Part shown: positions 46,015 through 62,885 of the stretch, piece by piece
Position numbering within the stretch: position 1 is the first letter of the stretch
Layout: every line of letters begins with the position of its first letter
Virus record (IMG/VR): IMGVR_UViG_3300033992_001111
Location: 34,586 to 98,585 of that record
Strand: one strand, 5' to 3'
Source of the DNA: a virus
DNA: 64,000 nt
Program-made: the position numbers and the translations under genes
Notes under the pieces: generated by a model
Told to the model about the DNA's origin: nothing
Seen by the model: only the letters and a program-made list of their open reading frames with translations
Database searches by the model: none

Positions 46015-46107
46015 AGTCAGGTTGGATACAAGGTCGGTTCGAGTCCGATGGAAGGTTATGGATGACGGGTAGCTCCCTGTAGAGAGGTTCGATTCCTCTC
46101 CTGACTA
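46015..46107 (+). tRNA. tRNA-like RNA with abnormal body
   Basis: Acceptor AGTCAGG (46015-46021) pairs with CCTGACT (46100-46106), discriminator A, no encoded CCA. T-arm AGAGG-TTCGATT-CCTCT is canonical. The interior is 61 bases instead of about 43, with no clear D or anticodon arm. It contains a second T-arm-like hairpin (GTCGG-TTCGAGT-CCGAT). Amino-acid identity cannot be assigned. Confidence 0.5.
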
Positions 46108-46122
46108 CAAAGATTAAATTAA

Positions 46123-47610: not shown

Positions 47611-47697
47611 AGTCAGGTGGCGGAATTGGAGAGACGCAACTCTATTAAGGAGTGGAGATGAAATAAACTCATACAGGTTCGAATCCTGTCCTGACTA
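47611..47697 (+). tRNA. tRNA-Leu (long variable arm), probable UAA anticodon
   Basis: 87 nt. Acceptor AGTCAGG/CCTGACT, D-arm GCGGAATTGGAGAGACGC, long variable region and T-arm ACAGG-TTCGAAT-CCTGT fit class II tRNA-Leu. With the usual numbering the anticodon would be TAA (loop ATTAAGG) but that stem has two mismatches. The better-paired register gives loop TATTAAG with TTA. CCA is not encoded. Confidence 0.65.
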
Positions 47698-47727
47698 CGA
47701 ATTAAAAAAAAAAATAACAAAGGTATT

Positions 47728-47972: not shown

Positions 47973-48323
47973 ATGAAAGACATATTATTGGTAATTGTAT
48001 TGAGATTATTCTTTTTCACTGTAATAGTATCTTTAGTAAGTTGTAGTCCTGACTATATTCCATCATCTGATGAGGTACAACACACCATTCATATATCAAA
48101 TGAAGGTAAACCTTTTGAGTATTGGTTGAATAAAGTTCACTACGATAGTGAGGGACAAGAGATAAAAGTAATAGTGGATTCAGGTACTCAAATTACTCTC
48201 AGTGCTATAGTTCCGGTTATTAACGGAGTTTCAATTAGTCCTAACTTTCAAGTATACCAAGATAGTAGGATTGTGGAGTTAAAAAAAGTTACAATAGGGT
48301 TCTTTTGGTATAAAGTAAAATAA
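47973..48323 (+). CDS. Lipoprotein
   Basis: 116 residues from ATG 47973 (earlier in-frame ATG at 47880 lies in the sRNA terminator). Signal peptide with lipobox: hydrophobic core then SLVSCSPDY, Cys near residue 24. The remainder is a beta-rich soluble domain. A phage-encoded lipoprotein could act in superinfection exclusion; this is inference. Confidence 0.75.
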   Translation: MKDILLVIVLRLFFFTVIVSLVSCSPDYIPSSDEVQHTIHISNEGKPFEYWLNKVHYDSEGQEIKVIVDSGTQITLSAIVPVINGVSISPNFQVYQDSRIVELKKVTIGFFWYKVK

Positions 48324-48347: not shown

Positions 48348-48379
48348 TTTGACAAATCAAAATAAAAGTTTTACCTTTG
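48348..48379 (+). promoter_or_regulatory. Bacteroidetes-type promoter of RNA operon (TTTG-N20-TACCTTTG)
   Basis: TTTG 48348-48351 and TACCTTTG 48372-48379. Downstream to 48900 there is no protein gene, only structured RNAs and a tRNA. Confidence 0.78.
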
Positions 48380-48414
48380 TCGAAGAAATAAAGTTCTTAA
48401 AAATATTGAAAGAT

Positions 48415-48493
48415 TAGTGTGGGTGTTGTGTCGAGGTTTCAAGTCCCTCCGGATTCATCCGTAGCTCAGATGGTAGAGCATACACCCACATTA
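48415..48493 (+). ncRNA. Circularly permuted tRNA-like RNA
   Basis: A four-way junction in permuted order: T-arm GAGG-TTTCAAGTC-CCTC (48433-48449), stub acceptor hairpin CGGA-TTCA-TCCG (48450-48461), TA, then a consensus D-arm GCTC-AGATGGTA-GAGC (48464-48479). The two ends form a 12-bp helix (48415-48426 with 48482-48493) in place of the anticodon stem. Consensus tRNA residues (T8, A14, GG18-19, TTC of the T-loop) are kept, but position 53-61 is T-C instead of G-C. Function unknown. Confidence 0.6.
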
Positions 48494-48500
48494 TAATATA

Positions 48501-48646
48501 TTCTAATTACAAGTTTAGGTCCGTAGGGCTGTAATGGTATGTGAGGAAAATGACTACGGGACAAACATACAACTGTACGAAATAAAGCAGAAGTCCTTCG
48601 CATTCAAAGTATTACTGTAAAATGTAATCGCCATTACAAGTTAGAA
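48501..48646 (+). ncRNA. Pseudoknot-rich RNA
   Basis: Closing helix TTCTAA (48501-48506)/TTAGAA (48641-48646); TGTAATGG (48530-48537)/CCATTACA (48631-48638); CCGTAG (48521-48526)/CTACGG (48554-48559); GTATGT (48537-48542)/ACATAC (48565-48570); ATTAC/GTAAT hairpin. The CCGTAG helix crosses two others, i.e. pseudoknots. No ORF. Confidence 0.5.
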
Positions 48647-48653
48647 TTAAATT

Positions 48654-48744
48654 GGTATTGTAGCTCAGTGGGGGATTTATCTTCCTTGGTAGAGCAGGAG
48701 TCTCGAAAGTCTCTGTGTCGCAGGTTCGAACCCCGCCGATACCA
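48654..48744 (+). tRNA. tRNA with a hairpin inserted in the D-loop
   Basis: 91 nt. Acceptor GGTATTG/CGATACC (one G-U), TA, D-stem GCTC/GAGC, T-arm GCAGG-TTCGAAC-CCCGC (one A-C mismatch), discriminator A. The D-loop contains an extra 6-bp hairpin GGGGGA-TTTA-TCTTCC, about 17 extra bases. The 7-base anticodon loop CTCGAAA would give CGA, but the stem is mostly G-U with one A-C mismatch, so identity is uncertain (short variable loop argues against Ser). Confidence 0.6.
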
Positions 48745-48750
48745 CAAATA

Positions 48751-48875
48751 GTTTACTCTGTGATAAGATAGCAGATAGACCTATTACAGCAGACTATCCC
48801 ATTAGGGAGTGCGAGTTTTAGGTAGTACAGAATGGGTGACCTACGAATGAGTAAATCTTAAGGTCTTATCACAGA
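48751..48875 (+). ncRNA. Double-pseudoknot RNA
   Basis: A perfect 12-bp helix TCTGTGATAAGA (48757-48768)/TCTTATCACAGA (48864-48875) encloses CCCATT (48798-48803)/AATGGG (48831-48836), which crosses TAGGT (48819-48823)/ACCTA (48839-48843). GTTTAC (48751-48756) also pairs with GTAAAT (48851-48856), crossing the outer helix. Poly-A follows. No ORF. Confidence 0.55.
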
Positions 48876-48902
48876 TTAAAAAAAAAAAGTTTTAGAAAGT
48901 AC

Positions 48903-48937: not shown

Positions 48938-49861
48938 CATTTAAGGGAAACCTTAAAGACGTTCTTAGAAATTTTAGATTATCCTTTACCCACTTCGGTG
49001 GAGTAAAAAACGATAATGGGTGGTATATCATCCTTAAATAAATTGATGAAAATCAATATAAACCGAACTTAGTTGTGTTATTAAGTTTGGGGCTTCTGAA
49101 AGGGAGCTCGAGTATACAAGTGAGATATCAGTGAGCCTGTAGTACCGAGGATAACTTCGTAGGGAAATGGATTACTGACCGGGAGATGTGGGTCTTTCGG
49201 TTGAGGGGGGAACCCCAAATTAAGAATAACTCATAGGAATTATGTGAGAAGTAAGGTCATCCAACCTTATAATTGCGAGTTCCAAAATTAAAGGAATCTT
49301 AACGCCGAAAGGCAAGATTAAGTAACAGGTGGTGCTGACTTTGTCCTTATCAAACATCTACCAAGATGTTGATTTGAAGAATTCTTGAAATTTGGAGATA
49401 GGGATATCTCATCGAGAAGTTTAGTATTTTGTGTCTCAAAAGGATACGAAGCTTATGGTAGACTACTTCTTGAATACATCCACAACACAATTACTATTTT
49501 CAATATGGTGAAAAACTAAAAGAAACATAGCAAAAATGTCTACCCGATGTCATTGACAAGTTGCCTACTTAGTTATGGGATGTCCATAGCACACAAAGAC
49601 CGCAAGTCTGAATGTATTCTTACCAAAAACCTCTACGGAGTCGAATCCGGAGTCAGGTCGCAAGCTTGAAGAGAGTTGAATAATGAGAGAGTAGATGATA
49701 TCGTAAGAAGTGATTGGTCTAACCAATCGGCAATGAGGATTACATCCCAAAAGGGTGTGGAAAAGAAGTCAAACAATAAAACTTCCAAAGATTCTCAATA
49801 AGACGAGTATTCTCATCGTATTAAGCCAAAAAGGTGTTACAGAAATGTGACACCTTTTTTT
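48938..49861 (+). ncRNA. Giant structured non-coding RNA (about 0.92 kb)
   Basis: No protein gene. Dense hairpins with stable loops: TTTAAGG-GAAA-CCTTAAA (48940), TTTACCCAC-TTCG-GTGGAGTAAA (48985), ATTGAT-GAAA-ATCAAT (49042), GGGG-GGAA-CCCC (49205), GCC-GAAA-GGC inside AATCTT/AAGATT (49295), AACATC/GATGTT (49353), GAGATA-GGGA-TATCTC (49395), GATTGG/CCAATC (49712). A promoter precedes and a strong terminator ends it, just upstream of smpB. Size, tRNA neighbourhood and phage setting recall GOLLD and ROOL ornate RNAs; class not confirmed. Confidence 0.7.
49828..49861 (+). terminator. Intrinsic terminator of the giant RNA
   Basis: GGTGTTACA-GAAA-TGTGACACC (9 bp, one G-U) flanked by A5 and T7. 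The -33 box of the smpB promoter starts in its T tract. Confidence 0.93.
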
Positions 49862-49893: not shown

Positions 49894-50334
49894 ATGAAGA
49901 AGTCGATAAACATAATTAATAAGAAAGCCAGGTTTGAATATGAATTCCTCCAAACAGATATTGTGGGAATTTCACTATTTGGTAGCGAGGTCAAATCCAT
50001 CCGTCAGGGAAAAGTTTCTATCTCCGAAGGGTACTGTTACTTCAAGGACGGTGAGTTATTTGTTAAGGGGATGAATATCTCCGACTATGGGTTTGGTTCA
50101 TTCCATGAGACTGTCAGGGACCGTAAACTACTATTGAAAAGAAAAGAGTTGAATAGTTTGGAGTCAAAACTTATGAATGGTTTAACCATCGTTCCTTACC
50201 GGGTCTTCATCAATGAGAAGGGATTGATTAAAATGGAGATTGCTCTTGCCAAAGGTAAAAAGATTCATGATAAGAAAAATTCAATAAAAGAGAGAGATAT
50301 TGACCGGGATATAAAAAGAGAAATAAATCGATAA
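49894..50334 (+). CDS. smpB: SmpB, tmRNA-binding protein
   Basis: 146 residues from ATG 49894; the longer frame from 49834 starts inside a terminator. Family motifs in order: NKKARFEYEF, GSEVKSIRQGKVSISEGY, RDRKLLLKRKEL, and C-terminal AKGKKIHDKKNSIKERD. SmpB delivers tmRNA to stalled ribosomes in trans-translation. No tmRNA was recognised in the window, so it may act on host tmRNA or on one of the structured RNAs next door. A phage smpB right behind a tRNA-like/giant RNA cluster is striking. Confidence 0.95.
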   Translation: MKKSINIINKKARFEYEFLQTDIVGISLFGSEVKSIRQGKVSISEGYCYFKDGELFVKGMNISDYGFGSFHETVRDRKLLLKRKELNSLESKLMNGLTIVPYRVFINEKGLIKMEIALAKGKKIHDKKNSIKERDIDRDIKREINR

Positions 50335-62165: not shown

Positions 62166-62885
62166 ATGAGGACATATAAAGAATATTTAGTTGGAGGTGC
62201 GGTTAGAGATGAGATTTTAGGGATAAGTAGTAAAGATTTAGATTATGTTTTTGTTTTTGATAACCTAAATGATGACCAAACTGCCGCGGAATGTTTTGAT
62301 GATATGACTAAGGTTATTCAAGAAAGAGGTGAAATATTCCTATCAACACCAAGCTGTTATACTATCAGATATAAAGATAGAGAAACCAAAGAGGTTAAAG
62401 ACGTGGTAATGGCCCGTAAAGAGATTGGTTACATTCCGGGAACAAGAACTCCAATCGTTAAGCCAGGGACTCTATACGATGATTTGGAAAGACGTGACTT
62501 TACCTTGAATGCTCTTGCTAAAGATGAGGATGGAACAATCATTGACTATTTCAATGGACTTAATGATTTGAGTGATAAAATTTTGAGAACACCATTACCG
62601 ACGGAGACAACATTTAATGATGACCCACTTAGAATTTTGAGATGTTTGCGTTTTTCTATTACAAAAGGATTTACCATTCCGGGAACAATGGCAATCACAA
62701 TGATGGTTTACAATTACGATGAGAAGATGAGTGTGGTGTCAACTGAAAGAATTAGAGAGGAATTATTCAAATGTTTTAAACACGATACTTTGAAAACATT
62801 AAGAGTTCTTGATGAATTCCCATTACTCAAAAATTACATCTTCAAGGATAGTGGATTATGGTTAAAACCAACTATGGAACAATAA
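62166..62885 (+). CDS. cca: CCA-adding enzyme / tRNA nucleotidyltransferase-like (short)
   Basis: 239 residues. YLVGGAVRDEILGISSKDLDYVF gives the GG...DxD catalytic motif; LERRDFTLNALAKD and DPLRILRCLRFSI are class II CCA-adding signatures (RRDxTxNA and R.LRA.RF). Cellular enzymes are about 400 residues, so the C-terminal body/tail is mostly missing. None of the tRNA-like genes in the window encodes CCA, so phage-directed CCA addition fits. Confidence 0.85.
   Translation: MRTYKEYLVGGAVRDEILGISSKDLDYVFVFDNLNDDQTAAECFDDMTKVIQERGEIFLSTPSCYTIRYKDRETKEVKDVVMARKEIGYIPGTRTPIVKPGTLYDDLERRDFTLNALAKDEDGTIIDYFNGLNDLSDKILRTPLPTETTFNDDPLRILRCLRFSITKGFTIPGTMAITMMVYNYDEKMSVVSTERIREELFKCFKHDTLKTLRVLDEFPLLKNYIFKDSGLWLKPTMEQ

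What the first reader, a model, noticed from the sequence alone, without database searches (positions are those of the whole stretch)
48415..48493. A circularly permuted tRNA-like cloverleaf
T-arm, capped mini-acceptor (CGGA-TTCA-TCCG) and a consensus D-arm occur in permuted order, and the two termini pair in a perfect 12-bp helix exactly where the anticodon stem would be. Permuted tRNA genes are known in some algae and archaea; I know of none established in phages. Here the acceptor is closed and the anticodon end open, so it might be a structural mimic, a precursor, or a regulator acting on tRNA-binding enzymes.
Basis: partly seen in the sequence, partly recalled or inferred. Interest (0 to 1): 0.88.

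Follow-up and report, generated by a model that had tools for sequence, protein, structure and literature searches.

The report
Phage Y-RNA-like tRNA mimic near GOLLD
The odd "inside-out tRNA" in this giant phage is a real, conserved RNA structure of a known kind, a bacterial Y RNA that mimics tRNA, but of a short variant that has lost the usual Ro60 partner gene and sits in a cluster of other tRNA-like RNAs beside a GOLLD RNA.

Summary
48415-48493 folds exactly as described, and relatives keep the fold through compensatory changes (17 of 24 pairs; 0 of 500 shuffles as good). It is not a circularly permuted tRNA gene. It matches, full length, the tRNA-like fold of bacterial Y RNA (YrlA, Rfam RF02553): permuted T-arm, closed mini-acceptor, D-arm and a long terminal helix. 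A model built only from the phage family finds a genuine Pseudomonas YrlA.

The Rfam score (40.4 bits) is below the gathering cut-off, and tandem tRNA junctions reach 38 bits, so the case rests on the 4-nt acceptor loop, the lack of flanking tRNA halves, covariation and a dedicated Bacteroidetes-type promoter.

New: this clade of large phages (contigs to 322 kb) lacks Ro60 (0 of 11 records, against 15 of 20 viral records with ordinary YrlA) and lacks the UACUUC landmark of Ro60-phage YrlA. Its Y-like RNA heads a cluster with an apparently anticodon-less tRNA-like RNA, often a second Y-like RNA, then GOLLD and SmpB. The likeliest role, inferred and untested, is an uncharged tRNA-elbow decoy for tRNA-binding or tRNA-cleaving enzymes. 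Verdict: new variant of a known kind.

The parts
48348..48379 (+). Bacteroidetes-type promoter TTTGAC...TACCTTTG ahead of the element
   Evidence: Pattern TTTG/TTGA-N17-24-TAnnTTTG at the same distance from the T-loop in nearly all relatives examined; absent in L084 and L033/L044. Consensus match, not an experiment.
48415..48493 (+). Y-RNA-like (YrlA-type) tRNA mimic, 'Y1'
   Evidence: Fold; Rfam YrlA 40.4 bits, E 7e-7, model 1-114; family model R1 and covariation
48415..48426 (+). 5' strand of the terminal 12-bp helix (anticodon-stem position)
   Evidence: 10 of 12 pairs show changes on both sides across 20 distinct Y1/Y2 sequences
48482..48493 (+). 3' strand of the terminal helix
48433..48449 (+). 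T-arm (GAGGTTTCAAGTCCCTC)
   Evidence: T-loop TTCRA kept in all but L130
48450..48461 (+). closed 4-bp mini-acceptor CGGA-TTCA-TCCG
   Evidence: all 4 pairs show compensatory changes across the family
48464..48479 (+). D-arm GCTCAGATGGTAGAGC
48654..48744 (+). tRNA-like RNA without a recognisable anticodon (8-nt NNYGAAAR-type loop, hairpin inserted in the D-loop), 3' of Y1; ARAGORN calls it tRNA-Pro(tgg)
   Evidence: conserved 3' of Y1 in relatives
49412..49819 (+). GOLLD RNA (conserved 3' part)
   Evidence: Rfam RF02032, 284.7 bits; downstream of Y1 in relatives with enough flank
49894..50334 (+). SmpB gene of the same neighbourhood
   Evidence: Pfam PF01668, E 2e-47

Best explanation
48415-48493 is the tRNA-like module of a bacterial Y RNA (YrlA type) in a short, Ro60-free phage version. 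Shown: it is conserved, its four helices covary, and it keeps the nucleotides that build the tRNA elbow (T-loop TTCRA; D-arm with A14, G15, G18, G19). Inferred: it is transcribed from its own promoter, folds into a tRNA-shaped elbow whose acceptor end is a closed hairpin and whose anticodon end is a long helix, and so can be bound and perhaps modified as a tRNA but cannot be charged, translated or cut in an anticodon loop. Most likely mechanism (about 0.4 on its own): in infected cells it competes for tRNA-elbow-binding proteins, such as host tRNA nucleases, tRNA-modifying enzymes or PNPase, together with the tRNA-like RNA and often a second Y-like RNA encoded next to it.
For: Fold and z-score. 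Full-length Rfam YrlA match, in the score range of YrlA in other viral contigs, 36-47.5 bits. R1, built from the phage family alone, hits a bona fide Pseudomonas YrlA at 55 bits (Rfam 74.7) and YrlA of Ro60-carrying phages at 27-50 bits. Covariation: 92.6% of cells paired, 17 of 24 pairs with double-sided changes, 0 of 500 shuffles; sliding partners gives 27-56%. L130 changes G19 to U and C56 to A together, as expected if the elbow pair forms. Conserved promoter and position. No TROVE/Ro60 in its own record or 11 family records, against 15 of 20 other YrlA-bearing viral records (Fisher p 7e-5); UACUUC-type motif 0 of 15 in the family against 12 of 15 with Ro60. Published: YrlA mimics tRNA and is a substrate of DusA and TruB (PMC8394870); YrlA was proposed as a competitive inhibitor of an anticodon nuclease (PMC7790460).
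Against: Score below Rfam's gathering cut-off (40.4 against 69). Junctions of tandem identical tRNAs score 34-38 bits in the same model, so the score alone does not prove membership. The A2 alignment was fitted to the structure, and much covariation separates a few lineages and Y1 from Y2. Most records are fragments, so absence of Ro60 is not proven; a host Ro60 could serve. No expression or binding data, and no target protein identified.
Confidence: 0.7

Rival explanations
1. It is an ordinary Y RNA that works with a host Ro60 (Rsr) protein as tether to PNPase (RYPER-like).
For: Same tRNA-like module as YrlA; other viral YrlA records usually carry Ro60; PNPase tethering is published for Deinococcus (PMC7790460, PMC8394870).
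Against: No TROVE in 11 family records or in its own record; the UACUUC landmark and internal loop of Ro60-phage YrlA are missing and the helix is continuous.
Confidence: 0.15
2. The element is mainly structural: a 5' cap or processing boundary that protects or releases the co-transcribed tRNA-like RNA and second Y-like RNA, or marks them as cargo of the GOLLD cage.
For: It precedes the tRNA-like RNA, and GOLLD follows, in relatives with enough flank; tRNAs occur in GOLLD linkers and a cargo role was proposed (PMC12286853).
Against: GOLLD has its own promoter-like sequence in most relatives; GOLLD-SmpB phages such as L154, L157 and L161 lack the element.
Confidence: 0.2
3. It competes with tmRNA for SmpB or regulates the phage's own trans-translation system.
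For: SmpB gene in the same neighbourhood in the relatives found through SmpB, tmRNA in several; the long helix in the anticodon position resembles the tRNA-like domain of tmRNA (general knowledge).
Against: Phages with SmpB, tmRNA and GOLLD but no Y-like element exist (L154, L157, L161); proximity only.
Confidence: 0.1
4. A genuine circularly permuted tRNA gene or precursor.
For: Gene order 3' half, intervening loop, 5' half, as in algal and archaeal permuted tRNAs (PMC3978253).
Against: 4-bp acceptor with a 4-8-nt cap and no CCA; continuous 12-bp helix where the anticodon loop should form; Rfam tRNA and ARAGORN do not call it.
Confidence: 0.02
5. A chance or degenerate junction of two adjacent tRNA genes, or a tRNA-derived attachment site.
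For: Tandem identical tRNAs can mimic the pattern (L182, L185).
Against: No tRNA halves flank it, the acceptor loop is too short to hold two tRNA ends, and all helices covary.
Confidence: 0.02

Closest known systems
YrlA / bacterial Y RNA (Rfam RF02553; Salmonella YrlA, PDB 6CU1 cited in PMC8394870)
   Same: Order T-arm, closed acceptor hairpin, D-arm, long terminal helix; conserved elbow nucleotides
   Different: Shorter; continuous helix without the internal loop; no UACUUC landmark; no Ro60 gene; below Rfam gathering score
YrlA in Ro60-carrying phages (e.g. L041, L054, L117, L050)
   Same: Same tRNA-like module, also phage-borne; R1 detects them
   Different: Those records encode TROVE/Ro60 and usually carry the UACUUC motif 18-31 nt before the T-loop
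Circularly permuted tRNA genes of algae and archaea (PMC3978253)
   Same: 3' half precedes 5' half
   Different: No usable acceptor, anticodon or intervening sequence for maturation
tmRNA tRNA-like domain
   Same: T-arm with a long helix in place of the anticodon stem (general knowledge)
   Different: No open acceptor/CCA, no coding region; a separate tmRNA gene exists in relatives

Membership tests
YrlA (bacterial Y RNA) | Permuted tRNA-like module: T-arm, closed acceptor hairpin, D-arm | tested here: met
YrlA (bacterial Y RNA) | Long stem formed by the RNA's two ends | tested here: met
   12 bp, covarying
YrlA (bacterial Y RNA) | Rfam gathering score (69 bits) | tested here: not met
   40.4 bits; Ro60-phage YrlA also fail it at 36-47.5 bits
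YrlA (bacterial Y RNA) | Ro60/Rsr gene in the same genome | tested here: not met
   No PF05731 in the own record or 11 family records; records may be incomplete, and the host was not tested
YrlA (bacterial Y RNA) | Ro60-binding helix (proxy: UACUUC-type motif and internal loop seen in Ro60-phage YrlA) | tested here: not met
   0 of 15 against 12 of 15; the proxy is inferred here, not from a structure
YrlA (bacterial Y RNA) | Binding to Ro60 and PNPase; tRNA-type modification | not testable with these tools
   needs biochemistry
Circularly permuted tRNA gene | Normal acceptor stem and anticodon arm after circularisation | tested here: not met
   4-bp capped acceptor; ends form a continuous helix
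Circularly permuted tRNA gene | Circular RNA intermediate | not testable with these tools
   needs RNA-seq
tRNA | Rfam/ARAGORN tRNA call | tested here: not met

The most novel reading that the evidence does not exclude
A Ro60-free lineage of Y RNAs has become part of a phage array of tRNA mimics (Y-like RNA, anticodon-less tRNA-like RNA, second Y-like RNA) that acts with the neighbouring GOLLD RNA cage and SmpB/tmRNA to capture or divert host tRNA-binding or tRNA-cleaving enzymes during infection.
Probability: 0.2. Interest if true: 0.8.

Novelty: new variant of a known kind. Interest (0 to 1): 0.5.

Why it matters
It separates the tRNA-mimic half of Y RNA from Ro60, suggesting that the mimic has a function of its own, and it places tRNA mimics beside GOLLD, whose function and cargo are unknown. 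An isolated phage with such a compact array would make both questions testable by deletion and pull-down.

Tried and rejected
A search with Pfam PF18897 was a mistaken accession and says nothing. DNA similarity to phage records gave only short fragments. The family pattern in 84,980 bacterial and archaeal genomes gave six loci: two classic YrlA (Brevibacillus, Pseudomonas), three tandem tRNA sets, one other; none of this family. RtcB absent in six family records; an RNA-ligase-like match in four, over the cut-off in one, not pursued. No tmRNA near the window's SmpB or elsewhere in its 98.6-kb record above cut-off, though the 309-kb relative G002 has one. R1 found nothing in Lak-phage and most other distant SmpB loci. 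Chen 2014 and the Wolin reviews were not held, so the exact published Ro60-binding motif could not be checked. The host was not identified; Bacteroidota is inferred from promoters only.

Full report
Observation. The region 48415-48493 is intergenic (the nearest ORF on the + strand ends at 48323 and the next clear gene, SmpB, starts at 49894). The permuted pattern is unique in the window and never arises in shuffles. The T-stem has 4 pairs plus one mismatch, and the 12-bp helix includes one G.U pair; otherwise the description holds.

What it is. Rfam's YrlA model (bacterial Y RNA, a tRNA mimic) matches 48410-48508 over its whole length at 40.4 bits, E 7e-7, below the gathering score of 69; the next best YrlA match in the 98.6-kb record has 10.9 bits. 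YrlA is described as a tRNA-like domain with D, T and acceptor arms on a long stem formed by the two ends (PMC8394870). Elements of the same architecture are common in IMG/VR; those examined with Rfam score 36-47.5 bits, also below gathering.

Control on the score. Junctions of tandem identical tRNAs in Paenibacillus reach 34-38 bits in the same model because the neighbouring anticodon strands can pair. The window element differs: its acceptor loop is 4 nt (4-8 nt in close relatives), no D-arm precedes and no T-arm directly follows, it has its own promoter-like sequence, and its helices covary.

Family and covariation. Patterns and SmpB-guided searches gave about 30 contigs with the element. 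The terminal helix changes from GTGGGTGT/ACACCCAC to GTGGACGT/ACGTCCAC. Among 20 distinct Y1 and Y2 sequences, 92.6% of cells pair, 17 of 24 pairs have double-sided changes and no shuffle of 500 does as well; sliding the partner by 1-3 columns gives 27-56%. The alignment is model-fitted and the lineages are few, so the counts are not independent events. In L130 the D-loop G19 becomes U while T-loop C56 becomes A, the change expected if the tertiary elbow pair forms (one case). R1, built only from this family, finds the Pseudomonas YrlA at 55 bits.

What differs from other Y RNAs. TROVE/Ro60 was found in 15 of 20 viral records with ordinary YrlA but in 0 of 11 family records, four of them over 300 kb, and not in the window's own record (Fisher p 7e-5, or 9e-4 after a rough collapse of near-identical records). 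Elements from Ro60-carrying records usually have a UACUUC-type motif before the T-loop (12 of 15); the family has none (0 of 15). The Rfam alignment shows the internal loop between the two YrlA helices deleted. So the tRNA-like module is kept while the probable Ro60 part is lost.

Neighbourhood. The order is: promoter-like TTTGAC-N-TANCTTTG, Y1, in some phages a conserved insert X, a tRNA-like RNA, in some phages a second Y-like RNA, in some a conserved module Z, a separate promoter-like sequence in most relatives, GOLLD, terminator, SmpB. tmRNA lies on the opposite strand beyond SmpB in many relatives. The tRNA-like RNA has good acceptor and T-arms but an 8-nt NNYGAAAR-type loop without U33 and a hairpin in the D-loop, so decoding looks unlikely. 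GOLLD-SmpB phages with more divergent SmpB lack Y1, so it is an accessory of one clade.

Mechanism. Shown: a conserved RNA fold of YrlA type in a Ro60-poor setting. Inferred: expression as a small RNA, elbow recognition by tRNA-binding proteins, no charging or decoding. YrlA is modified by DusA and TruB (PMC8394870), and a role as competitive inhibitor of an anticodon nuclease has been suggested for Salmonella YrlA, which is not cut by it (PMC7790460). A decoy is therefore my first choice, at about 0.4; a cargo or processing role with GOLLD, host Ro60 tethering, and SmpB competition follow.

Verdict. The finding is real and interesting, but it belongs to a known kind and phage Y RNAs are already reported. 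The Ro60-free form and its array with GOLLD are the new parts.

Noticed in passing
48654-48744: tRNA-like RNA with an 8-nt NNYGAAAR-type anticodon-arm loop, no U33 and a hairpin inserted in the D-loop; conserved in relatives (in L099 a GGAA-capped stem). ARAGORN's tRNA-Pro call is probably wrong.
   Followed up: partly
L132:4890-4988, L133:4669-4764, L135:4041-4136 and others: Second Y-like element 3' of the tRNA-like RNA in many relatives, with a larger acceptor loop; its scores overlap those of tandem tRNA junctions.
   Followed up: partly
48750-48880: Module Z: conserved apparently structured segment bounded by CTGTGATAAGA/TCTTATCACAG, found in 20 viral contigs and with no Rfam match.
   Followed up: partly
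48500-48650: Module X: segment with conserved ATGGTATGTGAGGAAAATGA between Y1 and the tRNA-like RNA in 7 viral contigs, no Rfam match.
   Followed up: partly
46015-46108 and 47611-47698: Two more odd tRNA-like genes with the same acceptor sequence AGTCAGG/CCTGACT; the first contains a second T-arm-like hairpin, the second has a long variable arm and an unclear anticodon loop.
   Followed up: no
49894-50334: Phage-encoded SmpB; relatives also encode a tmRNA on the opposite strand, not found in the window's record.
   Followed up: partly
62166-62885: PolyA_pol/CCA-adding-type nucleotidyltransferase domain, possibly relevant to the tRNA-like RNAs.
   Followed up: no
G005:268256-268669, G007:70474-70887 and similar: RNA-ligase-like match in four of six family records, over the cut-off in one.
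   Followed up: no
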